In this document: one piece after another, positions 261 to 56,152 of the stretch
Layout of the letters: each line of letters opens with the position of its first letter
How positions within the stretch are numbered: the stretch's first letter is position 1
NCBI RefSeq assembly: GCF_021390325.1
Contig: NZ_JAJUWU010000027.1
Location: 1-64,000, forward strand
DNA: 64,000 nucleotides
From: Jiella avicenniae
Lineage (GTDB): Bacteria > Pseudomonadota > Alphaproteobacteria > Rhizobiales > Rhizobiaceae
Reading direction: 5' to 3'
The notes under the pieces: generated by a model
What the model was told of the DNA's origin: nothing
What the model saw: the letters and a program-made list of their open reading frames with translations, nothing else
Database searches by the model: none
Made by a program: the position numbers and the translations under genes

Positions 261-1184
261 TCACCGGTCCTTCGGGTCGAAGGCGTCGCGCAGGCCGTCG
301 CCGATGAAGGCGAGGGCGAGGAGCATGGTCACGAGGACGCCGCCGGGAAAGAGCAGCAGCCAGTCTGCCGCGCCGATGGCGCCGGTGCCTTCGGAGATCA
401 GCGTGCCGAGCGAGGTCAGCGGTTCCTGCACGCCGAAGCCGAGATAGGACAGGAAGCTCTCGGTGATGACGATCTCCGGAATGGTGAGCGAGGCGTAGAT
501 GACCACCGGGCCGACGAGGTTCGGCACGATGTGCCTGAGGATGATCGGAAAGCTGGAAACGCCCGCCGCCCGAGCCGCCTCGACGAACTCCTTCTCCTTG
601 AGCGACAATGTCTGGCCGCGGACGATGCGCGCCATGGTCAGCCATTCCAGGAGCCCGATCGCGGCGAAGAGCAGGAAGACGTTCCGCCCGAACATCACCA
701 TCAGCAGGATGACGAAGAGGATGTAGGGAAGCGCGTACATGACGTCGACGAAGCGCATCATCGCGGAATCGATGCGCCCGCCGGCAAATCCCGAGACCGC
801 GCCGTAGAGGACGCCGACGACGACGGAGACGGCGGTCGCGATCAGCGCCACGAGCAGCGAGATCCGCGTGCCGTAGAGGGTGCGGGCGAGGAGGTCGCGG
901 CCGTTCTGGTCGGTGCCGAAATAGTGGCCGCTCTCGATGGAGGGCGGCGCGGTGAAGGCGTTCCAGTCCGGCGTCTCGTAGTCGTAGGGGATGAGATAGG
1001 GACCGACGAGCGCCGCCAGAACGATGAAGGCGAAGACGAACAGCGCGGTCATCGCCGCCTTGTTGGCGCGCAGCCGCCGCATGGCGTCGCGGGTGACCGA
1101 GCGGGGCTTGCCGCGCGGCATCTCGTCGTCGCGGCCGAGGAAGGCGTCTTCCAGCGCTTCGCGCTTGCCGGCATAGAGGGTCAT
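261..1184 (-). CDS. oppC: Oligopeptide ABC transporter permease OppC
   Basis: 307 residues. Inner-membrane permease of an oligopeptide/dipeptide importer; pairs with OppB to form the channel. The N-terminus has the short cytoplasmic segment and first helix typical of OppC (about residues 35-60), followed by the periplasmic loop with the YFGTDQNGRDLLAR motif and five more membrane segments. The EAA cytoplasmic loop that docks the ATPase reads EFVEAARAAGVSSFPIILRH. Its ATG overlaps the oppB stop (ATGA at 1181-1184), so translation is probably coupled. It is the last gene of the minus-strand operon oppA-oppB-oppC. The ATPase genes oppD/oppF, which usually follow, are not seen before the IS110 fragment. 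Confidence 0.93.
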   Translation of the reverse strand: MTLYAGKREALEDAFLGRDDEMPRGKPRSVTRDAMRRLRANKAAMTALFVFAFIVLAALVGPYLIPYDYETPDWNAFTAPPSIESGHYFGTDQNGRDLLARTLYGTRISLLVALIATAVSVVVGVLYGAVSGFAGGRIDSAMMRFVDVMYALPYILFVILLMVMFGRNVFLLFAAIGLLEWLTMARIVRGQTLSLKEKEFVEAARAAGVSSFPIILRHIVPNLVGPVVIYASLTIPEIVITESFLSYLGFGVQEPLTSLGTLISEGTGAIGAADWLLLFPGGVLVTMLLALAFIGDGLRDAFDPKDR

Positions 1185-2104
1185 CGCTGGCGCACCTTCG
1201 GATCGAGCCAGGCATAGGCGAGATCGACGAGGAGATTCAGCAGAACGATCAGCGCCATGTAGAAGATCACCGTGCCGAGAACCATGCCGTAGTCCCGGTT
1301 GAGCGCGGCGTTGACGAAGTAGCGGCCGATGCCGGGAATGCCGAAGATCTGTTCGACGACGATCGAGCCGGTGAGGAGATAGCCCGCCGCCGGGCCGAGA
1401 TAGGAGACGACCGGGGTCAGCGCCGGGCGCAGCGCATGTCCGAGCACGACGCGCCGGCGGCCGATGCCCTTGGCCGTCGCGGTCTTGATGAAGTTCGAGT
1501 TCATCGTCTCGATCAGCGAGCCGCGCATCAGCCGCGAGATGCGGGCGATATGGGGAAGGGCGAGGACGAGCACCGGCAGGAGCAGGAAGCGCGGTCCGCC
1601 GTCGCCCCAGCCGCCGACCGGGAGCCATCCCAGCCGGACGCCGAAGACGAGCTGCAGGATCGGCGCGACGAGGAAGTTCGGCACGACGAGGCCGGTCATC
1701 GCGACGGCGCCGATCAGCCAGTCGGCCGAGCGGTTGTGATAGAGCGCGCCGTAGATGCCGGCGACGATGCCGCCGAGGATGGCGAGAAGAAACGCCGAGC
1801 CGCCGAGGATCAGCGTATAGGGCAGGCCGATGGCGATCTGCCGCGCGACGGTGAAGTCCTTGGTGACGAAGGAGGGGCCGAGGTCGAGCTGGGCGAGGCG
1901 GCCGAGATAGCGCAGGTACTGGACGATCAGGCTGTCGTCGAGATGGTAGTAGGCGCGCAGATTGGCGAGCACCTCCGGCGGCAGCGCCCGCTCCTGGTCG
2001 AACGGCCCGCCGGGGGCGAGCCGCAGGATGAAGAAGCAGGCGGTGATCGCGATCAGAACGACCGGAATCGTCGAGGCCAGCCGCTTCAGGACGAAGATCA
2101 GCAT
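1181..2104 (-). CDS. oppB: Oligopeptide ABC transporter permease OppB
   Basis: 307 residues, the usual OppB length. N-terminal helix (residues 8-30), then the conserved APGGPFDQER segment, a periplasmic region and five further membrane helices. The EAA loop (around MNSNFIKTATAKGIGRRR) is present, as is the C-terminal GIGRYFVNAALNRDYGMVLG signature of the OppB/DppB family. It lies 117 bases downstream of oppA and overlaps oppC by 4 bases. Substrate is inferred to be peptides from the family and from the adjacent OppA-type binding protein; the exact ligand is not determinable. Confidence 0.93.
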   Translation of the reverse strand: MLIFVLKRLASTIPVVLIAITACFFILRLAPGGPFDQERALPPEVLANLRAYYHLDDSLIVQYLRYLGRLAQLDLGPSFVTKDFTVARQIAIGLPYTLILGGSAFLLAILGGIVAGIYGALYHNRSADWLIGAVAMTGLVVPNFLVAPILQLVFGVRLGWLPVGGWGDGGPRFLLLPVLVLALPHIARISRLMRGSLIETMNSNFIKTATAKGIGRRRVVLGHALRPALTPVVSYLGPAAGYLLTGSIVVEQIFGIPGIGRYFVNAALNRDYGMVLGTVIFYMALIVLLNLLVDLAYAWLDPKVRQR

Positions 2105-2221
2105 GTCGGGAATGGTTTCCGTAAAAGGCCCGGGGCTCGTTGATCGGCCCCGGTGCGAAACGGCGTGTCCGTCACCGCCAAAAGCGGCAGACGGGTCGAA
2201 GACGGCCTGGCGCCTCCGCTC

Positions 2222-3811
2222 CTACTCGGTCATCGACAGCCAGCGGGTGCGGTGCTTGTCGAAGACGTTGTCCTCGAAGCCCTTCACCTTCGGCGAGACG
2301 ATGTTTTCCGACAGGTAGAAATAGATCGGCAGCGCGGCGTCCCGATCGAGCGCGATCTTTTCCGCCTTTTCCAGAATCCCGGCGCGCTGGTCGAGATCCT
2401 GGGTCTTGGCGGCTTCGGCCAGCAACTGGTTGTAGTCCTCGTTCGACCACTGGCCGTAATTCATTTCGATCCCGCTCTTCAGAAGGTCGAGGAAATTGAC
2501 GGGATCGTTGAAGTCGGCGAGCCAGCCGGCGCGGGCGACCTCGAAGGCGCCTTGGCGCAGATTGGCGTAGTGCACCTTCACTTCGGTGTTTTCGAGGCTG
2601 ACATTGACGCCGAGTGGCTTCCACATGGCGGCGATGGCGACGGCGACGCGCTTGTGGTTGTCGTTGGTGTTGTAGCTGAGGGTGACGTTCAGCGGCTTGT
2701 CGGGGCCGTAGCCGGCCTCCTCCAGAAGCGCCTTGGCCTTTTCTAGGCGCTCGGGATAGGGCTCGCTCGCCCAGTCGAAGCGAGCGCCTTCCTCCGGATA
2801 ATTGTTCATGCCGGGCGGCACCCAACCATAGGCAGCCGGCTCGCCCGAACCGAGCACCTTCGGCCCGATGACCTCGCGGTTGACCGCCAGCGACAGCGCC
2901 TCGCGCACCTTTTCGTCGTCGAAGGGCGGCTTGCTGGTGTTGAAGACGTAGTAATAGAGGCCGGCAAAGGGGGCGAAGTGACCTTCGCCCGGCAGGTTCT
3001 CCTGGATGAACTTGAACTGGTCCTTGGGATAGTCGGTCATCAGGTCGATCTCGCCGGCCTGATAGCGGCGGAAACCGGCCGAGACGTCCTCCATCGAGAG
3101 AAAGCGGACGCCGTCGATGTCGAGCTTCTCCTGGCCGCCATGCCAGTATTCGTTCCTGGCGGTGAGCACGTGGCTTCCCGGCACCCACTCCACCGGTTTG
3201 TAGGGTCCGTCGGTGACGATCGTGCCGATCTGCACCCAGTCGTCGCCGACCTTGTCGATCAGGTGCTTGGGCACGGGATAGGCGGTGTAGTGGGTGAGAA
3301 GGCTCGGATAGTAGGGGACCGGCTGCTCGAGGGTGATCTCGAGCGTCTTGTCGTCGACGGCCTTGACGCCGAGCTGATCGAGATCGTCGATCTTGCCGGT
3401 GTTGATCGCGGCGGCGTTCTTGATCGGATATTGCAGATAGGCGTATTGCGCCGCCGTCTTCGGATCCATCAGCCGCTTGAAGGCGAAGACGAAGTCCTCC
3501 GCCGTCACGGGCTCGCCGTCGGACCATTTGGCGTCGTCACGCAGCTTGAACGTCCAGGTCAGGCCGTCCTCGGAGGTCTCGTAGCTTTCGGCGACGCCGG
3601 GAATCGGCTTGGCCTTGGCGTCCTCGGTGAAGAGGCCTTCGAAGATGTCGCCCTCGACGCGGTCTTCCCAGTCGCCCGACAGTTTGTGCGGGTCGAGCGA
3701 GGTCACGTCGCCGCCATTGTACATGACGAGTTCCTTGGCGTGGGCCGCGCCCAGCGCCAGCACTGTCGAGAGCGCGAGCGCGCCCGTGAACGTCTTGAAG
3801 GAGAAGCTCAT
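2222..3811 (-). CDS. oppA: Periplasmic oligopeptide-binding protein OppA
   Basis: 529 residues. Solute-binding protein of family 5 that delivers peptides to OppBC. The start at 3811 gives a clean signal peptide (MSFSFKTFTG..., cleaved near AAHA-KE); an upstream in-frame ATG at 3907 would put about 32 unlikely residues before it. Mature N-terminus has YNGGDVTSLDPHK, a typical OppA/MppA opening, and the ligand-lobe motif YYYVFNTSKPPFDDEKVREA near the middle. First gene of the minus-strand importer operon. The ~450 bases upstream are non-coding and presumably carry its promoter. Confidence 0.93.
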   Translation of the reverse strand: MSFSFKTFTGALALSTVLALGAAHAKELVMYNGGDVTSLDPHKLSGDWEDRVEGDIFEGLFTEDAKAKPIPGVAESYETSEDGLTWTFKLRDDAKWSDGEPVTAEDFVFAFKRLMDPKTAAQYAYLQYPIKNAAAINTGKIDDLDQLGVKAVDDKTLEITLEQPVPYYPSLLTHYTAYPVPKHLIDKVGDDWVQIGTIVTDGPYKPVEWVPGSHVLTARNEYWHGGQEKLDIDGVRFLSMEDVSAGFRRYQAGEIDLMTDYPKDQFKFIQENLPGEGHFAPFAGLYYYVFNTSKPPFDDEKVREALSLAVNREVIGPKVLGSGEPAAYGWVPPGMNNYPEEGARFDWASEPYPERLEKAKALLEEAGYGPDKPLNVTLSYNTNDNHKRVAVAIAAMWKPLGVNVSLENTEVKVHYANLRQGAFEVARAGWLADFNDPVNFLDLLKSGIEMNYGQWSNEDYNQLLAEAAKTQDLDQRAGILEKAEKIALDRDAALPIYFYLSENIVSPKVKGFEDNVFDKHRTRWLSMTE

Positions 3812-4268
3812 TTTCGCCCCGCGGATTGGTGGATGTCGCACCCTGGGGTGCAACCCTGATTTCCAATTGTTCCATTTCCGCTGCGCGTGTCCAGAGGGGG
3901 GCTGCACAAGGATCCGTCATGCCGATGAGGAAGGCAGTGCGTCGACTGTGCGGGCAAAGCCCTTTCAGGCCGGGCGCTCCCCCGGCAAAAAGGGGGGCTC
4001 TGCCGAAAGCGATTGTCCTGTGGACAATTCCTCACGCGACGGGCAAATGCCCGGCGTTTCCTGAGACGACGTATCGATCGAGGCAATCGCGCGCCATGCA
4101 TCGTCCGACGCTCCGGCCGGCGAGGGTCCCCTGATCATCCCGGAATGCGACCTTATATGAGGGGCATCACGGGGATCGATGTCGATCCGTGCTCTCGTTG
4201 CCAAAGAGCGGTGTGCCGCCGGCCTGCGCGGCAGGCCGTGAATGCCCGGAACCTCTCAGGAAATACGC
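3812..4268. promoter_or_regulatory. Divergent intergenic region with a 17-bp dyad
   Basis: About 457 bases separate oppA (minus) from the first exporter gene (plus). No convincing gene is visible. A perfect dyad, ATTGTCC-TGT-GGACAAT at 4012-4028, is the only clear symmetric site and could be an operator. The plus-strand gene has a good ribosome binding site (AGGAA near 4258-4262). Confidence 0.35.
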
Positions 4269-8053: not shown

Positions 8054-8111
8054 GGGCGCACCGGCGATGAGATTCGTCGAAAGGCGGTGCCGTCGACCGT
8101 CCGCGCCGGCT

Positions 8112-8465
8112 TCATTTTGCCTGAATGCTCTTCAGATAGGTGACGATTGCCGCGGCCTTTGCGGGCGTGAAGACGAACTGCGGCATGTCGGGGTGGCCCG
8201 TCGACAGGCCCTCGACGAGGGCTTCCTCGATCTGTTCGACGGGATAGCGCTCGGACAGCGTGCGAAAGGGCGGTGCCGCCGGGTGCGGACTGTCTCCGGA
8301 CCCCGTGACGGCGTGGCAGCGGGAGCAGTTCTCCTCGAGCAACTGCTGACCGACCGCCAGTTGCGATCGCTCTTCCGCCGTCGCCGTCAGCGCTCCGGCG
8401 AGGAGGAGGAAACAGCCTGCCAGCAGCCCCGACGTCCTCGGCAAATTCATTCGTCGCGCTGTCAT
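8112..8465 (-). CDS. Secreted mono-heme class I cytochrome c
   Basis: 117 residues. Signal peptide with a hydrophobic core at about residues 13-30 and likely cleavage after TATA, so it is exported to the periplasm. The heme-c attachment site is C47-S-R-C50-H51, and M94 in HPDMPQF is the likely distal heme ligand. Start at 8465 is supported by AGGAGG about 10 bases upstream on the minus strand; a second ATG (8450) is also possible. It faces the exporter pair convergently. Electron-transfer partner not identifiable from context. Confidence 0.9.
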   Translation of the reverse strand: MTARRMNLPRTSGLLAGCFLLLAGALTATAEERSQLAVGQQLLEENCSRCHAVTGSGDSPHPAAPPFRTLSERYPVEQIEEALVEGLSTGHPDMPQFVFTPAKAAAIVTYLKSIQAK

Positions 8466-8600
8466 CGTCCGATCTCCTCCTATGTCGAGGTGATGAAGTC
8501 GCATTGCCTTGCCGCCGCCGCCTTGATCCCCGTCAAGGCGGCGCCGTCGAAGTTCGGCGAGGCATCGCGGCGAGGGCGGGGACATCGAGGGAGACGGGCG

Positions 8601-10145
8601 ATGAAGGACGAGGGCCAGGCAGAGGTGATCGCCTTCCTGAAGACCGGCGGCCTTCTCGGGGATCCGGACGCCGTCGCGGAGGTCACGACCCACATCTCGC
8701 ATCTCCTCCTCGGGCGAAAGACCGCGCTGAAGCTGAAGCGGGCGCTGAAACGCCCCTATGTCGATTTCTCGACGCCCGACCTCCGGCTTGCGGCGGCAGA
8801 GCGCGAGGTCGAGCTCAACCGGCGCACCGCGCCGCAGCTCTATCGTGGCGTCCGGCGCATCACCCGTGAGCCGTCCGGCGAACTGGCACTGGATGGCGGC
8901 GGCGATCTCGCCGACGTGGTGGTCGAAATGGCCCGCTTCGACGAGGAGACGCTGTTCGACCGCATGGCCGTCGCCGGCACGCTGACGAACGAGCTGATCG
9001 AGACCCTGGCGCGGCAGATCGCCGACTTCCATCGGGGCATCGAGGCTGCGCCGCGTAACGACGGCGCAGCGCATATGGCCGGCGTCCTCGACGTCAACGA
9101 GGCGGCGCTCGCCGGCGGCGACGTCTTCGCCGACGATGCGGTGGCGGCCTTCAACGGCCGCTTCCGCGAGAAGCATGCGGCACTTTCGGAACTCCTCGAC
9201 CGGCGCGGCCGTGCCGGCATGATCCGCCGCTGCCACGGCGACCTTCATCTCAAGAACGTCTGCCTCGTCGGTGGCGAGCCGACGATCTTCGACTGTCTGG
9301 AATTCGACGAGGATCTCGGCACCACCGATCTCCTCTACGATCTCGCCTTCCTGCTGATGGACCTTTGGCACCGCGATCTTCGCGATCACGCCAACCTCGT
9401 CCTCAACCGCTATCTCGATCTCACCGGCGACGAGGCCGGCCTGCCGCTGGTGCCGTATTTCATGGCGGTCCGGGCGGCGGTGCGTGCCCATGTGGCGGCG
9501 ACGGTCGCGGCGGACATGGACGAGGGCGCCGAGGAAAAGCGGGCCGAGGCGACGAACTATTTCGACCTCGCGTCCCGCCTTCTGGACGAGAGGGCGCCGC
9601 TCCTCGTCGCGGTCGGCGGGCTGTCCGGCTCCGGCAAGTCGACGGTCGCACGGATGATCGCACCACGGATCGGTCCGGCGCCGGGCGCGCGGACGCTGTC
9701 GAGCGACCGGCTGCGCAAGGCGCGCTACGGGGTGTCTCCTCAGACCCGGCTGGGCGCGGACGCCTATGCGTCGGCGGTGACGGCGGCCGTCTACCGCGAC
9801 CTTTCCGAACGGGCTGGCGCAATCGTTTCTCTGGGGCATGCCGCCGTCGCCGACGCGACCTTTTCGACGTCAGAGGAACGCGCGGCGATCGAGGCGGCCG
9901 CCAAGCAGGCGGGCGTCCCGTTTCGCGGCATCTGGCTCGACGTTCCGGCGGACGAACTCGTTCGCCGCGTGGGTTCGAGGTCCGGCGATCCGTCCGACGC
10001 GACGCCCGAGATCGTCCGCCGCCAGATCGCGAACACCACCGGGGCGATCGGATGGGCGGTCATCGATGGCGAGGGCACGGCCGCTTCGGTGCGCGATCGT
10101 GTTCTGGCAATGCTGGAAGAAACGCGCGACGAATCCACCCCGTGA
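8601..10145 (+). CDS. Two-domain kinase: APH-like phosphotransferase fused to a P-loop (zeta/AAA-type) kinase
   Basis: 514 residues. The N-terminal domain (about 1-320) is of the aminoglycoside-phosphotransferase type, with the catalytic loop CHGDLHLKN around residue 211 and the metal-binding FDCLEFDEDLG around 229. The C-terminal domain (about 330-514) is a P-loop kinase with Walker A GGLSGSGKST near residue 340. This corresponds to the widespread uncharacterised COG2187+COG0645 fusion. Start at 8601 has GAGGGAG upstream. It is divergent from the cytochrome gene. Substrate unknown; antibiotic resistance should not be assumed from the APH fold. Confidence 0.88.
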   Translation: MKDEGQAEVIAFLKTGGLLGDPDAVAEVTTHISHLLLGRKTALKLKRALKRPYVDFSTPDLRLAAAEREVELNRRTAPQLYRGVRRITREPSGELALDGGGDLADVVVEMARFDEETLFDRMAVAGTLTNELIETLARQIADFHRGIEAAPRNDGAAHMAGVLDVNEAALAGGDVFADDAVAAFNGRFREKHAALSELLDRRGRAGMIRRCHGDLHLKNVCLVGGEPTIFDCLEFDEDLGTTDLLYDLAFLLMDLWHRDLRDHANLVLNRYLDLTGDEAGLPLVPYFMAVRAAVRAHVAATVAADMDEGAEEKRAEATNYFDLASRLLDERAPLLVAVGGLSGSGKSTVARMIAPRIGPAPGARTLSSDRLRKARYGVSPQTRLGADAYASAVTAAVYRDLSERAGAIVSLGHAAVADATFSTSEERAAIEAAAKQAGVPFRGIWLDVPADELVRRVGSRSGDPSDATPEIVRRQIANTTGAIGWAVIDGEGTAASVRDRVLAMLEETRDESTP

Positions 10146-14068: not shown

Positions 14069-15274
<1,206 letters not shown>

Positions 15275-15303
15275 CCATCCACTGCCCGGATCAAGACGGC
15301 GGA

Positions 15304-15332
15304 GCGGGCGGTCCCATGGGCCGCCCGCTTTT
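15304..15332 (+). terminator. Rho-independent terminator of aatA
   Basis: GCGGGCGG-TCCCATGGG-CCGCCCGC is a perfect 8-bp stem followed by TTTT and a T-rich stretch, 30 bases after the aatA stop. Confidence 0.85.
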
Positions 15333-15438
15333 CGTTTGCCCGTAACGCCCGCATCGCGGCCGTCCGACGCGCCCCCCGGAACAAGCGCGGCGGTCTTGCC
15401 ACGGCGGCAGGAATGCAGGCTCTCGGCATGCGAAAGGC

Positions 15439-15547
15439 AAAAAAAAGCCGGGTCCAAAAGAACCCGGCCAATCGTGGTCTCGAAAGACCGTATGGGAGGA
15501 AACAGTCGGACGGATCGACTGGGAGGAGGTGCCGACGCATCCGACTG
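15439..15547 (-). ncRNA. Candidate trans-acting sRNA of the AbcR/alpha-r15 type
   Basis: About 108 bases on the minus strand forming three consecutive hairpins. Hairpin 1: arms CAGTCGGA/TCCGACTG (15540-15547 with 15503-15510) display a loop with CCTCCTCCCA (complement of 15520-15529). A single-stranded stretch follows with CCTCCCA (15493-15499). Hairpin 2 is GGTCT-TTCG-AGACC (15476-15489). Hairpin 3 is a GCCGGGT...ACCCGGC terminator (15447-15468) followed by eight T (15439-15446). AbcR sRNAs of rhizobia and Brucella are ~110 nt, have this three-hairpin plan, and use unpaired CUCCCA-type anti-Shine-Dalgarno motifs to repress ABC-transporter mRNAs. Their linkage to aatA in relatives is recalled knowledge. 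Strand and 5' end are inferred from the promoter-like site. Confidence 0.78.
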
Positions 15548-15552
15548 ACGCC

Positions 15553-15580
15553 AATCTAATTCGTCATACGAACAGATCAA
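15553..15580 (-). promoter_or_regulatory. Promoter-like site for the AbcR-like sRNA
   Basis: On the minus strand, TTGATC (15575-15580) and TAGATT (15553-15558) are separated by 16 bases, a reasonable housekeeping sigma factor arrangement. The predicted start falls about 6-7 bases further on, at the foot of the first hairpin. Confidence 0.55.
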
Positions 15581-15850
15581 ATGCCGAGCCGGCATGCCAG
15601 CCATGCATTTCGACGATAGCTGATTTCGATCGCTGACCTGAAATCGCACGGATTTTCGAAAACACTCGATAGAAATATTCTATCGAACGACCGCTTTCGT
15701 ATGCGTATCGTGCAGATCTTGCGTTGCGCGACCATCGGCGGCCGACCGCCTTACGCCGCTCGCGCCCGTCGGCATTAACCATCCGTCGCCTTCATTGCGG
15801 CCATCGAGCGAAATCGGCGGCGCGAGGCTTACGCCAGTCGAGGGAAAGTC

Positions 15851-15866
15851 TTAATCTCCTGTTAAC
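15851..15866 (+). promoter_or_regulatory. CtrA-type binding box (TTAA-N7-TTAAC)
   Basis: TTAA at 15851-15854 and TTAAC at 15862-15866 are separated by exactly seven bases, matching the full CtrA consensus of alphaproteobacteria. It lies 57 bases upstream of the start of the membrane protein at 15923, a normal position for a CtrA-controlled promoter. Binding is inferred. Confidence 0.6.
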
Positions 15867-15922
15867 GCAATGCGATGGGGCGACGACGCCTCGCCGTCAG
15901 TCCCTCCAGGAGTCCCGCGTTC

Positions 15923-17242
15923 ATGGGTGCATCGCAGTCTTACACCTTGCGGGGACAGGTCACGCGGCTCGACGCCACGACCCGGATCACCCTGTCGGTG
16001 TTGGCGCTGGCCAGCGGCGTCTATACCTATCTCGGCGTGCGCGAGCTTCTCGACGGCGACGAGACGACGGTCTTCCTCGGGGCCATCGTCTACTCTTCGG
16101 CCGTCTCCGTCGCCATCTACGCCTTCTGGTCCTATCTCATGCGTTTCATGCCGCATGTGCGCAGCGGCCGAGGCATGCTCTATCTCGCCATGGCGATCGG
16201 CTCGGCGATGATCATCGCCATGTCCTCCTGGCTGAACGCCTCGGCGCTTGCGGGGTCCGCGGCGCTCGAACAGCATCTCGCGGTTACAACCGAGGCCTAT
16301 CAGCAGAAGCTCACCGAGGCGCACGAAAACGCGCTGGCGGCACAGAGCCTCCTGCCGGACATTCAGCTCGCCTCCCAGCGCTTTGCCGGGCTTTCCGATC
16401 AGGAGGCCCGCTCGGGCGTCCTCACCGGGACGTCCGGGTCCGGGACGGTCGTCCAACTCCTGCGCCAGATGTCGAACCAGCTCTCCGGCCTCCAGGCGGA
16501 GATCGAAGGCTCGCGGCAGCAGGTCAAGACGCTGTTCGAACAGGGCGGCGAGCATCTGGCGACGATGCGCAAGCTCGTCTCTTCGCAAGGGCCGGTCGCC
16601 GAACGTTCCAACGCCTATGGCGAGGAGGCGGTGGCGCTCTCCGGCCTGCTCACCTCGCTCGAACAGACCTCCGTCGCCCCCGCCGTGCGCCGCGCCGCCG
16701 AAGATCTCGGCCGCAGCTTCATCGCGCCGATCTCCGACGGGACCGACGCCGATCTGCGCGATCGCCAAAGCCGCGTCGTCGGCACGATCGAGGCGGCGGT
16801 GAAGACCCAGAGCCAGGCCCTGGCGACCGCTGCCGACGAGATCCTCGCCCGGCCGAAGGTCGAGCCGTTGCGCTTCACGCCGCTTTCGGCGCCGGAGGCG
16901 GTCATCCGTTATGCCCGGGATTTCCTGCCATCCTGGGCCGGGGCGATTTCCATCGACCTTTTGCCGGCGGTGCTGATCTTCGTCCTGTGCATCGTCCAGG
17001 ACGTGATCCGCCGCGAGGAGGGCGAGGAGTTCGAGGTCGGCGACATGAGCGCCGGCGAAATGATGCGGGCGCTGCGCATCCAGAAGAAGCTGAAGGCCGC
17101 CGAGCGCTCCGACGATGGAGACGAGGCTGCCTCTGCGCCCTATTACGGCGAGATCTCCGGCCCGCCGCGCGAAGAGGACGACATCGTCCAGCGCAACCGG
17201 CCGGCGGGTGCGACGCCCTTCCCGAAGACCGCGGCACGATAG
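15923..17242 (+). CDS. Polytopic membrane protein with a large periplasmic coiled region, function unknown
   Basis: 439 residues. Three membrane segments near the N-terminus (roughly 22-42, 50-75 and 85-112), a ~220-residue segment rich in Ala/Gln/Glu that looks helical (for example NQLSGLQAEIEGSRQQVKT), then a fourth helix ISIDLLPAVLIFVLCIVQDVI and a charged C-terminal tail. Start 15923 chosen because AGGAG lies about 10 bases upstream. No named domain recognised; similar proteins occur in rhizobia as hypothetical genes. It is followed 57 bases later by a membrane-anchored ClpP-fold protein on the same strand, and preceded by a CtrA-type box, so a cell-cycle-linked envelope role is a reasonable guess. 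Confidence 0.78.
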   Translation: MGASQSYTLRGQVTRLDATTRITLSVLALASGVYTYLGVRELLDGDETTVFLGAIVYSSAVSVAIYAFWSYLMRFMPHVRSGRGMLYLAMAIGSAMIIAMSSWLNASALAGSAALEQHLAVTTEAYQQKLTEAHENALAAQSLLPDIQLASQRFAGLSDQEARSGVLTGTSGSGTVVQLLRQMSNQLSGLQAEIEGSRQQVKTLFEQGGEHLATMRKLVSSQGPVAERSNAYGEEAVALSGLLTSLEQTSVAPAVRRAAEDLGRSFIAPISDGTDADLRDRQSRVVGTIEAAVKTQSQALATAADEILARPKVEPLRFTPLSAPEAVIRYARDFLPSWAGAISIDLLPAVLIFVLCIVQDVIRREEGEEFEVGDMSAGEMMRALRIQKKLKAAERSDDGDEAASAPYYGEISGPPREEDDIVQRNRPAGATPFPKTAAR

Positions 17243-22424: not shown

Positions 22425-24251
22425 TCAGTCGGGCGCGCGCCAGAAGGCCGGCAGGAAATAGCCGTAGAGCGGCGTCGTGTCGGGATGCTTGATGAAATTC
22501 CAGCGGGCAAGGCGCTGCTCGGGCAGATGGAACAGCGGGACGACGTAGTGGCCGGAGATCAGCGCCCGGTCGTAGGCCCTGACGGCGGCGACGAAATCCT
22601 CGCGCGAGCGCGCGGTGACGATGTCGTCGATCAGGGCGTCGATCGCCGGGTCCGCCGCCCCGGCATAGTTGAAGGAGCCGTTGACGTCCTTCGACTTCGA
22701 ACTCCAGCGATAGGCCTGCTCGGCGCCCGGCGAGAGCGAGGCCGAGTAGGAGGCGATGATCATGTCGAATTCGAAGGCGTTCTTTCGGGCCTGATACTGG
22801 CTGTCGTCGACGAGGCGCACGCTCGCCGCGATGCCGAGGCGCCCGAGCGTACGCGTGTAGGCCTGCGCCATCTTCACCTGTTCGGGCGACTGGGCGAGAA
22901 TCTCGAAGGCGAGGGGTTTGCCGTCCGGCCCGACGAGCCGGCGGCCCTCGAGACGGTAGCCGGCCGCCTCGAACTGATCCAGCGCCGCGCGCATCACCTT
23001 GCGGTCCGAGCCCGAGCCGTCGCTGACGCTCGGGCGATAGGTGCCGTCCATGACCTCGGGGTCGACGTCGTCCGGATAGGGCGCAAGCAGCGCCTTCTCC
23101 TTTTCACTCGCCGGCCGGCCGAGGGCGGACAGTTCGGAATTCTGGAAATACGAGCCGGTCCGCTCATAGGCGTCGTAATAGAGCGTCTTGTTGGCCCATT
23201 CGAAGTCGAACAGCATCGACAGCGCCTTGCGCACCTTCCGGTCGGAGAAGATCGGCCGCCTGGTGTTGAAGACGAAGGCCAGCATGTTGGGCGGCGCGCC
23301 GGTCTCGAACGTTTCCTTGACGATCCGGCCGTCCTTCACCGCCGGAAAATCGTAGGCGGTGCGCCAGTGGTTCGGGTCGCCTTCGAGATAGATGTGGCAG
23401 TTGCCCTTCTTGAACCCCTCGAACTGGGCGTTGGTGTCGCGATAGTAGTCGATCACCACGGTGCCGTAGTTGAAGATCCCCTTGCGGATCGGCAGGTCCC
23501 TGGCCCAGTAGTCGGGGTTCTTCTCGTAGACGATCTCCTGGCCCGGCTTCACGTCGGCGATCACATAGGGGCCGGAGCCGATCACCGGCTTCAGCGTCGT
23601 GCGCTCGAAGGTCTTCTCGTCGAAGGCGTGCTCGGGCAATACCGGCAGGCCGGCGATCAAAAGCGGCGTCTCCCGGTCGGCCGTCTCGTCGAAGGTGAAG
23701 CGGACGCCGTCGTCGCCGACCTTTTCGATCTTCACCGCCGGGCGCAGCCAGTTCGCATAGATCGGCCGTCCATGCTCGCGCAGCATGCGGACCGTGAACA
23801 GGACGTCTTCGGGGGTGATCTTCACCCCGTCGGAGAACGTCGCCCGCGGATCGAGCCGGAACTCGACGAAGCTGCGCTTGTCGTCGGTCTCGATGGTCTC
23901 GGCGATCAGGCCGTACATGGTGAAGGGCTCGTCCGGCGAGCGCTGCATCAGCGGCTCGAAGACGAGGTTGCCGAACTCCTTGTCGAACCAGATGCCCCGC
24001 GCCGTGGTCAGCGCGCCGCGCACGATCACCGGGTTGAGATTGTCGAAATTGCCGAAGACGCAGTAGCGCATCGTGCCGCCCTGCGGCGCGTCGGGATTGG
24101 CATAGGGAAGGGTCTGATAGTCCGCCGGCAGCGCCGGCTCTCCCTGCATGGCGATCGCATGGGCCGGCGCGGCGCTTGCGGCATCGGCGGCGGCGGCGAG
24201 CGGCACCGCTGCGAAGACGAAGGCGCAGACGGCGGCATGGTGTTTGCGCAT
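22425..24251 (-). CDS. Periplasmic peptide-binding protein of ABC importers (family 5, YejA-like), orphan
   Basis: 608 residues. Signal peptide MRKHHAAVCAFVFAAVPLAA with a cleavage site near ASA-AP. The mature part contains the YejA-type opening (LPYANPDAPQGGTMRYCVFGNFDNLNPV) and the lobe motif IGSGPYVIADVKPGQEIVYEKNPDYWARDLP. YejA-type proteins bind oligopeptides or microcin-like peptides and work with YejBEF, but no permease or ATPase gene flanks this copy. Start chosen at 24251 because it gives a proper signal peptide and GGGAA lies upstream. Confidence 0.9.
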   Translation of the reverse strand: MRKHHAAVCAFVFAAVPLAAAADAASAAPAHAIAMQGEPALPADYQTLPYANPDAPQGGTMRYCVFGNFDNLNPVIVRGALTTARGIWFDKEFGNLVFEPLMQRSPDEPFTMYGLIAETIETDDKRSFVEFRLDPRATFSDGVKITPEDVLFTVRMLREHGRPIYANWLRPAVKIEKVGDDGVRFTFDETADRETPLLIAGLPVLPEHAFDEKTFERTTLKPVIGSGPYVIADVKPGQEIVYEKNPDYWARDLPIRKGIFNYGTVVIDYYRDTNAQFEGFKKGNCHIYLEGDPNHWRTAYDFPAVKDGRIVKETFETGAPPNMLAFVFNTRRPIFSDRKVRKALSMLFDFEWANKTLYYDAYERTGSYFQNSELSALGRPASEKEKALLAPYPDDVDPEVMDGTYRPSVSDGSGSDRKVMRAALDQFEAAGYRLEGRRLVGPDGKPLAFEILAQSPEQVKMAQAYTRTLGRLGIAASVRLVDDSQYQARKNAFEFDMIIASYSASLSPGAEQAYRWSSKSKDVNGSFNYAGAADPAIDALIDDIVTARSREDFVAAVRAYDRALISGHYVVPLFHLPEQRLARWNFIKHPDTTPLYGYFLPAFWRAPD

Positions 24252-55878: not shown

Positions 55879-56022
55879 GGCGCTGGACGCCGACCTTGAC
55901 AAGCGCCCGCCATGCTGCTTCAACCCCCGCAAATCCGCGACATGCCGTCCGCGATCCGCCGACCGGGCCCCTCGTCCTGACAGGAAATTCCTGAAAGGGC
56001 CGCCGAGCCGCCCGGAGGTCAA

Positions 56023-56058
56023 CATCCCCCAGCGAGTTTCGCCCGGGGATGCGTTTTT
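56023..56058 (+). terminator. Rho-independent terminator ahead of ffh
   Basis: CATCCCC (56023-56029) pairs with GGGGATG (56045-56051), followed by CG and five T (56054-56058). It closes the chloride-channel remnant and separates it from ffh. Confidence 0.7.
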
Positions 56059-56152
56059 GCTTTGCGCCGTTTCCGGCGCGGGCAACGGGTTTGCGTATGG
56101 CGGTCGGTCGCCCCACCTTCCGTCTGATCACGGAAGGACGGAAGGAAGCTTG

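What the first reader, a model, noticed from the sequence alone, without database searches (positions are those of the whole stretch)
15439..15580. AbcR/alpha-r15-like sRNA gene converging on aatA
Visible: minus-strand promoter-like boxes, three consecutive hairpins, two unpaired CCTCCCA anti-Shine-Dalgarno motifs and a perfect terminator with eight T, all within ~110 bases. Known: AbcR sRNAs of rhizobia, Agrobacterium and Brucella have this size and plan and silence ABC-transporter mRNAs. Several peptide transporter genes (oppA, the YejA-like gene) occur in this same window and are plausible targets. Only one copy is seen here, while many relatives have two.
Basis: partly seen in the sequence, partly recalled or inferred. 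Interest (0 to 1): 0.82.

Follow-up and report, generated by a model that had tools for sequence, protein, structure and literature searches.

The report
Diverged AbcR small RNA beside aatA
This looks like a real small regulatory RNA gene, the local form of the AbcR RNAs with which rhizobia and their relatives silence nutrient-uptake genes, and in this bacterial lineage one of its two target-binding words has been replaced by a second copy of the other.

Summary
The minus-strand RNA gene at 15549-15439 folds far better than shuffles and matches in all 10 genomes of its genus searched, own included. Rfam's ar15 (AbcR) model does not detect it, but four results make it the AbcR orthologue. (1) Model R1, built from its genus alone, hits 26 of 30 Rfam-ar15 loci (23 distinct genes) at E<=0.01, against 1 of 30 ar14 loci. 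(2) It lies beside aatA, where relatives have aatA-abcR-lsrB; Aureimonas glaciei keeps that whole order with the same RNA type. (3) An exact LsrB/VtlR box lies 57 bases upstream, as in 28 of 39 loci. (4) All 31 pairs covary over 39 sequences. One copy was found; NfeR1/ar14 is a separate tandem array. New: AbcR's second seed M2 (GUUCCC) is replaced by GUUUCCUCCCA, a second CUCCCA, in 16 of 52 sequences read; the other 36 have M2. The change falls on one branch with both Aureimonas rows; outside families carry M2. The targets oppA and the YejA-like gene are not supported. No expression data exist here.

The parts
15439..15549 (-). AbcR-type sRNA gene (about 106-111 nt; 5' end estimated at 15549-15545, not mapped)
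   Evidence: Fold z -5.46; DNA match in 10 of 10 genomes of the genus, own included; the one R1 match in the own genome
15503..15547 (-). Hairpin SL1; its 11-base loop ACCUCCUCCCA exposes the first seed
   Evidence: Folds; pairs covary
15520..15529 (-). Seed 1 CCUCCUCCCA, containing AbcR motif M1 CUCCCA
   Evidence: Sequence; M1 as in passages of PMC5461406
15493..15503 (-). Seed 2 GUUUCCUCCCA in the SL1-SL2 linker, where AbcR RNAs have M2 GUUCCC
   Evidence: linker identity 0.97 in the genus
15476..15489 (-). Hairpin SL2
15439..15469 (-). Rho-independent terminator with eight T
15553..15580 (-). Core promoter TTGAT-N17-TAGATT (weak match, inferred)
   Evidence: Spacing as in PabcR1; not found by the sigma-70 scan
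15594..15606 (-). LsrB/VtlR box GCATGGCTGGCAT = GCAT-N3-TG-N3-T
   Evidence: Exact match; exact near -58 in 28 of 39 loci, about 0.4% expected by chance; in 7 of 10 genus loci
14072..15274 (+). aatA, converging with the sRNA; conserved neighbour

Best explanation
The gene encodes the orthologue of AbcR (alpha-r15) in an Aureimonas-like bacterium, a trans-acting sRNA of about 110 nt. Shown by sequence: a conserved three-hairpin RNA beside aatA at the old abcR locus, with an LsrB-type box upstream and two unpaired anti-Shine-Dalgarno seeds. Inferred: the LysR-type regulator LsrB, whose gene lies elsewhere in this genome, activates it; the RNA, probably with Hfq, pairs by its CCUCCC seeds with ribosome-binding sites of mRNAs (by analogy with AbcR, of solute transporters) and blocks translation. 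This lineage has replaced the second seed M2 (GUUCCC) by a second CUCCCA copy, which probably narrowed or shifted the set of targets.
For: R1, built from 10 genus sequences only, finds 26 of 30 ar15 loci (23 distinct genes) at E<=0.01, best 37.4 bits, against 1 of 30 ar14 loci (20.9 bits). Aureimonas glaciei L018: aatA 2501-3697 +, R1 match 3820-3938 -, lsrB 4998-4108 -; L017, L037 and L044 have the same order with Rfam ar15 over its cut-off. LsrB box exact in 28 of 39 loci near -58, the window's included; about 0.4% expected per locus. Covariation: 31 of 31 pairs with both-sided changes, 0 of 500 shuffles as high; RNAalifold alone gives 25 pairs, all with such changes. LsrB orthologue in the own genome, 69% identity; Hfq gene present.
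Against: Rfam ar15 does not detect it; the only ar15 hit in the own genome is 19 bits on another contig. Other families score higher on it than any ar15-clan model: a Betaproteobacterial sRNA 28.1, ar14 24.5, SorY 22.3, suhB 20.4 bits, all below cut-off; SorX beats ar15 on L011, 29.7 against 26.7. M2 is missing. lsrB is not adjacent here. The LsrB box is not exact in 11 of 39 loci, among them 3 of 10 genus loci and both Aureimonas records. R1 gave a match in only 16 of 80 AatA loci, some of them chance. Leaders of 21 solute-binding-protein genes were not more complementary to the seeds than those of 29 dehydrogenase genes. Alignment A3 was fitted to R1, so the pair counts lean towards it. No expression evidence.
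Confidence: 0.87

Rival explanations
1. It is an NfeR1/ar14 ('cuckoo') RNA, another family with CCUCCUCCC loops that also acts by anti-Shine-Dalgarno pairing.
For: Seed 1 holds the exact cuckoo word CCUCCUCCC (passages). Rfam ar14 gives 24.5 bits, more than suhB, the best match kept of the ar15 clan, 20.4.
Against: 24.5 bits is far below the cut-off of 58.8. The own genome has four separate ar14 matches in tandem at G000:C6:109857-110365, two over the cut-off. R1 hits 26 of 30 ar15 loci and 1 of 30 ar14 loci at E<=0.01. Locus and LsrB-box form are those of abcR. ar14 RNAs are described with three such motifs; this RNA has two.
Confidence: 0.06
2. It is a separate, unnamed CUCCC-bearing sRNA that moved next to aatA in place of a lost AbcR.
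For: Rfam ar15 fails, the second seed differs, and lsrB is not adjacent in this genus.
Against: Aureimonas glaciei and an Aureimonas MAG carry the same RNA type between aatA and lsrB; R1 matches ar15 genes end to end; the LsrB box sits at the same distance.
Confidence: 0.05
3. It is a terminator and 3' element of the neighbouring transcript only, with no independent sRNA.
For: No transcript was observed; the sigma-70 scan found no promoter.
Against: The conserved block covers SL1, linker and SL2 and is preceded by a conserved box region (identity 0.72 at -75 to -45 against 0.44 further upstream).
Confidence: 0.02

Closest known systems
AbcR1/AbcR2 (alpha-r15, Rfam RF02345) of Sinorhizobium, Agrobacterium and Brucella
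   Same: Size (121 and 114 nt in S. meliloti), three hairpins, M1 CUCCCA in the SL1 loop, unpaired pyrimidine-rich seed in the SL1-SL2 linker, LsrB/VtlR box at about -60, abcR locus beside aatA in relatives
   Different: Not detected by the Rfam model; M2 GUUCCC replaced by GUUUCCUCCCA; one copy found; lsrB not adjacent in this genus
NfeR1 / cuckoo RNAs (alpha-r14, Rfam RF02344)
   Same: CCUCCUCCC loop word; anti-Shine-Dalgarno mode of action; LsrB-activated in S. meliloti (passages of PMC10746234)
   Different: Separate tandem array in the own genome; three such motifs; score 24.5 against a cut-off of 58.8
SorX and SorY (Rfam RF02784, RF02651)
   Same: CUCCC words and strong terminator; weak matches here and in L011 and L015
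   Different: All below their cut-offs (14.5 and 22.3 bits on the window)

Membership tests
AbcR / alpha-r15 | Rfam RF02345 score at or above the gathering cut-off of 40 bits | tested here: not met
   No ar15 match kept at the locus at E<=10 (the clan competitor suhB was kept at 20.4 bits); own-genome search: one hit, 19 bits, on another contig
AbcR / alpha-r15 | Three hairpins with a Rho-independent terminator, covarying with known ar15 RNAs | tested here: met
AbcR / alpha-r15 | M1 CUCCCA unpaired in the first hairpin | tested here: met
   15525-15520 in the SL1 loop; exact there in 14 of 16 loci of this type
AbcR / alpha-r15 | M2 GUUCCC between hairpins 1 and 2 | tested here: not met
   Absent in 16 of 16 loci of this type, replaced by GUUUCCUCCCA
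AbcR / alpha-r15 | Gene directly downstream of lsrB/vtlR (as in A. tumefaciens and S. meliloti) | tested here: not met
   lsrB lies on another contig; met in two Aureimonas records with the same RNA type
AbcR / alpha-r15 | LsrB/VtlR box GCAT-N3-TG-N3-T upstream of the promoter | tested here: met
   15606-15594, exact; binding itself not tested
AbcR / alpha-r15 | More than one copy per genome (stated for Rhizobiaceae and Brucellaceae, passage of PMC3712013) | tested here: not met
   One R1 match in a 97.65% complete assembly
AbcR / alpha-r15 | Hfq binding and silencing of ABC-transporter mRNAs | not testable with these tools
   Hfq gene present; crude leader test negative
NfeR1 / alpha-r14 | Rfam RF02344 at or above 58.8 bits and three CCUCCUCCC motifs | tested here: not met
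   24.5 bits; one CCUCCUCCC and one UUUCCUCCC

The most novel reading that the evidence does not exclude
In an ancestor of the Aureimonas lineage AbcR lost its otherwise deeply conserved seed M2 and gained a second M1-type anti-Shine-Dalgarno seed. Together with a tandem array of NfeR1-type genes that carry the same word, AbcR would have been rewired from a two-word to a one-word regulator whose targets overlap those of NfeR1: a natural seed swap.
Probability: 0.5. Interest if true: 0.6.

Novelty: new variant of a known kind. Interest (0 to 1): 0.45.

Why it matters
It extends AbcR to a lineage that Rfam's model misses. In Brucella most targets are reported to be regulated by M2 or by both motifs, and M2, not M1, is needed for full virulence (passages of PMC5461406); here is a lineage whose orthologous RNA has no M2. 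That makes testable which AbcR targets depend on which seed and what happens to a regulon when one seed is lost in evolution. It also suggests that the LsrB box can persist at abcR after the lsrB gene has left the locus.

Tried and rejected
Rfam at gathering level gave nothing at the locus. At E<=10, 12 matches were listed for 15280-15860, all below their cut-offs; those on the sRNA strand lean on the CUCCC words and the terminator.

NfeR1/ar14 identity was considered seriously and rejected.

Targets. For oppA (solute-binding protein family 5; start taken at 3811) and the YejA-like gene (24251, same Pfam family) the fractions of 2000 random 60-base windows at least as complementary were 0.69 and 0.73 for seed 1, 0.36 and 0.66 for seed 2; none of the 11 leaders tried was in the best 5% for either seed. 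Solute-binding-protein leaders (21) against short-chain dehydrogenase leaders (29) of the own genome: no enrichment, medians were weaker, one-sided p 0.94 and 0.99. Rows dropped before that count: of 21 Peripla_BP_6 matches 16 were used (1 duplicate, 4 weak or partial left out) and 1 gave no start; of 9 SBP_bac_3 matches 6 were used (1 duplicate, 2 partial); of 52 adh_short matches 30 were fetched and 29 used (1 duplicate). Start codons were chosen by a crude rule and some are surely wrong, so this negative is weak.

The LsrB-type box of NfeR1 promoters (TGCA-N6-GCAT) was looked for once in L149 and not found. A distant nucleotide search of plasmids found nothing.

Full report
What is there. 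On the minus strand at 15549-15439 lies a compact RNA gene: a long hairpin whose 11-base loop is ACCUCCUCCCA, a linker with UUUCCUCCCA, a small hairpin and a strong terminator with eight T. It folds at -52.1 kcal/mol against a shuffle mean of -33.9 (z -5.46; 0 of 200 shuffles as good). A DNA search of 81 genomes, own included, gave a match in 15: all 10 of the genus, own included, and 5 of 39 genomes of other genera in the family; 4 of those 5 (G031, G035, G044, G045) match over only 35-38 bases, and G044 matches at the terminator end alone. Among the 10 genus sequences the linker is 96.9% identical, SL2 96.2%, SL1 81.4%, the terminator 80.8%, the 49 bases downstream 29.1%. All 10 fold into three hairpins.

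Is it Rfam ar15? By the model, no. No ar15 match was kept at the locus at E<=10, where suhB of the same clan was kept at 20.4 bits. The own genome searched with ar15 at E<=10 gave one hit, 19 bits, on another contig. In 61 relatives, own included, ar15 was found in 25 and over the cut-off in 17, but in 0 of the 10 genomes of this genus. Of 12 loci of the window's RNA type given to Rfam at E<=1, ar15 was listed for L011 only (26.7 bits), and there SorX scored more (29.7).

Is it an AbcR orthologue? Four lines say yes. First, model R1, built from the 10 genus sequences, was run over 96 loci. Of the 30 loci fetched with Rfam ar15, 26 had an R1 match at E<=0.01, up to 37.4 bits, at the ar15 gene or its tandem copy; three pairs of loci read the same gene, so these are 23 genes. 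Of the 30 loci fetched with ar14, 1 did (20.9 bits). Second, the locus. Paramesorhizobium deserti (L017), Pseudochrobactrum (L037) and Rhizobium sp. (L044) have aatA, then ar15 over its cut-off on the other strand, then lsrB. Aureimonas glaciei (L018) has aatA 2501-3697 +, an R1 match at 3820-3938 - (50.1 bits) and lsrB 4998-4108 -; an Aureimonas MAG (L016) has the same order. In the window's genus aatA was found within the 1.5-kb flank of the sRNA in 8 of 10 genomes and lsrB in 0 of 10; the own lsrB is G000:C18:16343-17233, 69% identical to the query, with no R1 match at E<=1 within its flanks (L167). lsrB and the sRNA are also apart in G030, G031 and G035. The aatA neighbourhood is not universal: 16 of 80 AatA loci gave an R1 match at E<=1, some of them chance hits, and of the 40 AatA loci given to Rfam, 5 had ar15 over the cut-off. 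Third, the promoter. The published LsrB/VtlR consensus GCAT-N3-TG-N3-T, reported at -61 to -49 in PabcR1 (passages of PMC8844928; PMC7486931), matches exactly at 15606-15594, 57 bases before the R1 start; with the 5' end at 15545 it would be -61. Of 39 loci 28 have an exact box at -75 to -45; 0.4% per locus is expected by chance. In the genus 7 of 10 are exact; several others, the two Aureimonas records included, have A for the first T of the TG. Fourth, covariation: over the 39 sequences of A3 all 31 pairs show both-sided changes, 92.7% of cells are paired, 0 of 500 shuffles as high, and slid versions reach at most 46.2%. A3 was fitted to R1; RNAalifold on it gives 25 pairs, all with both-sided changes. 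Within the genus alone covariation is weaker: 4 of 31 pairs with both-sided changes.

What is different. Brucella work defines M1 CUCCCA in the first hairpin and M2 GUUCCC between the first two hairpins, both also in Agrobacterium AbcR and S. meliloti AbcR1 (passages of PMC5461406); S. meliloti work places aSD2 UUCCCCUC in an ultraconserved stretch (passages of PMC8844928). In one search I read 52 sequences (39 of A3, 13 more). 36 have GUUCCC and not GUUUCCUCCCA (rows L097 and L125 read the same gene, so 35 distinct); 16 have GUUUCCUCCCA and not GUUCCC: the 10 genus loci, L011, L012, L013, L015, L016 and L018. M1 in the SL1 loop is exact in 14 of those 16 (not L008, L018). L210, read later, has M2. 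A further 14 matches, chosen from the weaker ones, were read: 8 have GUUCCC, among them Pleomorphomonas L058, Kaistia L094, three from other family codes (G058, G067, G071) and two Bartonella; 3 have neither word (L118 with GUUACCC, L211, L212); 3 look like chance hits (L059, L038, L021). Not read: ar15 matches for which no locus was returned (four in G023) and the weakest R1 matches (L054, L020, L056). On a tree of 39 LsrB proteins the 15 rows of the new type are one side of a branch, support 100/100, 0 of 500 shuffles as low, and include both Aureimonas rows, labelled Aurantimonadaceae; G045 (L015) is not on that tree. M2 in outside families suggests that its loss is the derived state.

How it most likely works. 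LsrB activates transcription (box shown, binding inferred). The RNA exposes two anti-Shine-Dalgarno seeds (shown by fold) and, probably with Hfq (gene present), occludes ribosome-binding sites (inferred from AbcR1/2 and NfeR1). With M2 gone, targets should be mRNAs with GGGAGG-type sites. I could not show a target: oppA and the YejA-like gene are no better than random, and solute-binding-protein leaders as a class are not enriched. Single leaders fit well, for example L215 (Peripla_BP_6; -15.4 kcal/mol with the linker seed), but dehydrogenase leaders reach -17.8.

Number of copies. One R1 match in the own genome at E<=1 with the more permissive search (150 of 5963 first-look candidates scored). 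The separate NfeR1/ar14 array has four matches at G000:C6:109857-110365, two over the cut-off.

Literature. Library searches for AbcR with Aurantimonadaceae and for AbcR1 with Aureimonas returned 0 papers; none of the 20 papers listed of 49 holds Aurantimonas. The library lacks most subscription papers, and a survey of alphaproteobacterial sRNA families that I asked for is not held. The claim that the M2 change is undescribed is limited to those searches. Of the papers cited I saw search listings and passages, none in full.

Organism.

Noticed in passing
G000:C6:109857-110365 (L149): Four ar14/NfeR1 (cuckoo) matches in tandem in the own genome; 2 to 8 matches, weak ones included, in the other genomes of the genus. 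RNAs with the same CCTCCTCCC word thus coexist with the single AbcR.
   Followed up: partly
window 56008-56059 +: Match to Rfam RF01793 (ffh sRNA), 57.7 bits against a cut-off of 35.
   Followed up: no
window 261-3811 - and 22425-24251 -: Peptide-transporter-type genes: OppC-type permease 261-1628, permease 1181-2104 and solute-binding protein family 5 2222-3811, and a second family 5 binding protein 22425-24251.
   Followed up: partly
G002:C46 and G009:C11: In these two same-genus genomes lsrB lies about 41 and 47 kb from the sRNA on the same contig, which hints at a local rearrangement.
   Followed up: no
G000:C44 and G000:C49: Several matches occur on both contigs with identical scores, as if a stretch is duplicated in the genome or in the assembly.
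   Followed up: no
window 15875-17242 +: A 455-aa open frame without a Pfam match now stands on the lsrB side of the locus; a frame with similar N-terminal residues lies beside the sRNA in L013.
   Followed up: no
window 8067-10145 +: A 692-aa frame with an AAA_33 domain, a phosphotransferase-family (APH) match and a weaker Zeta_toxin-profile match.
   Followed up: no
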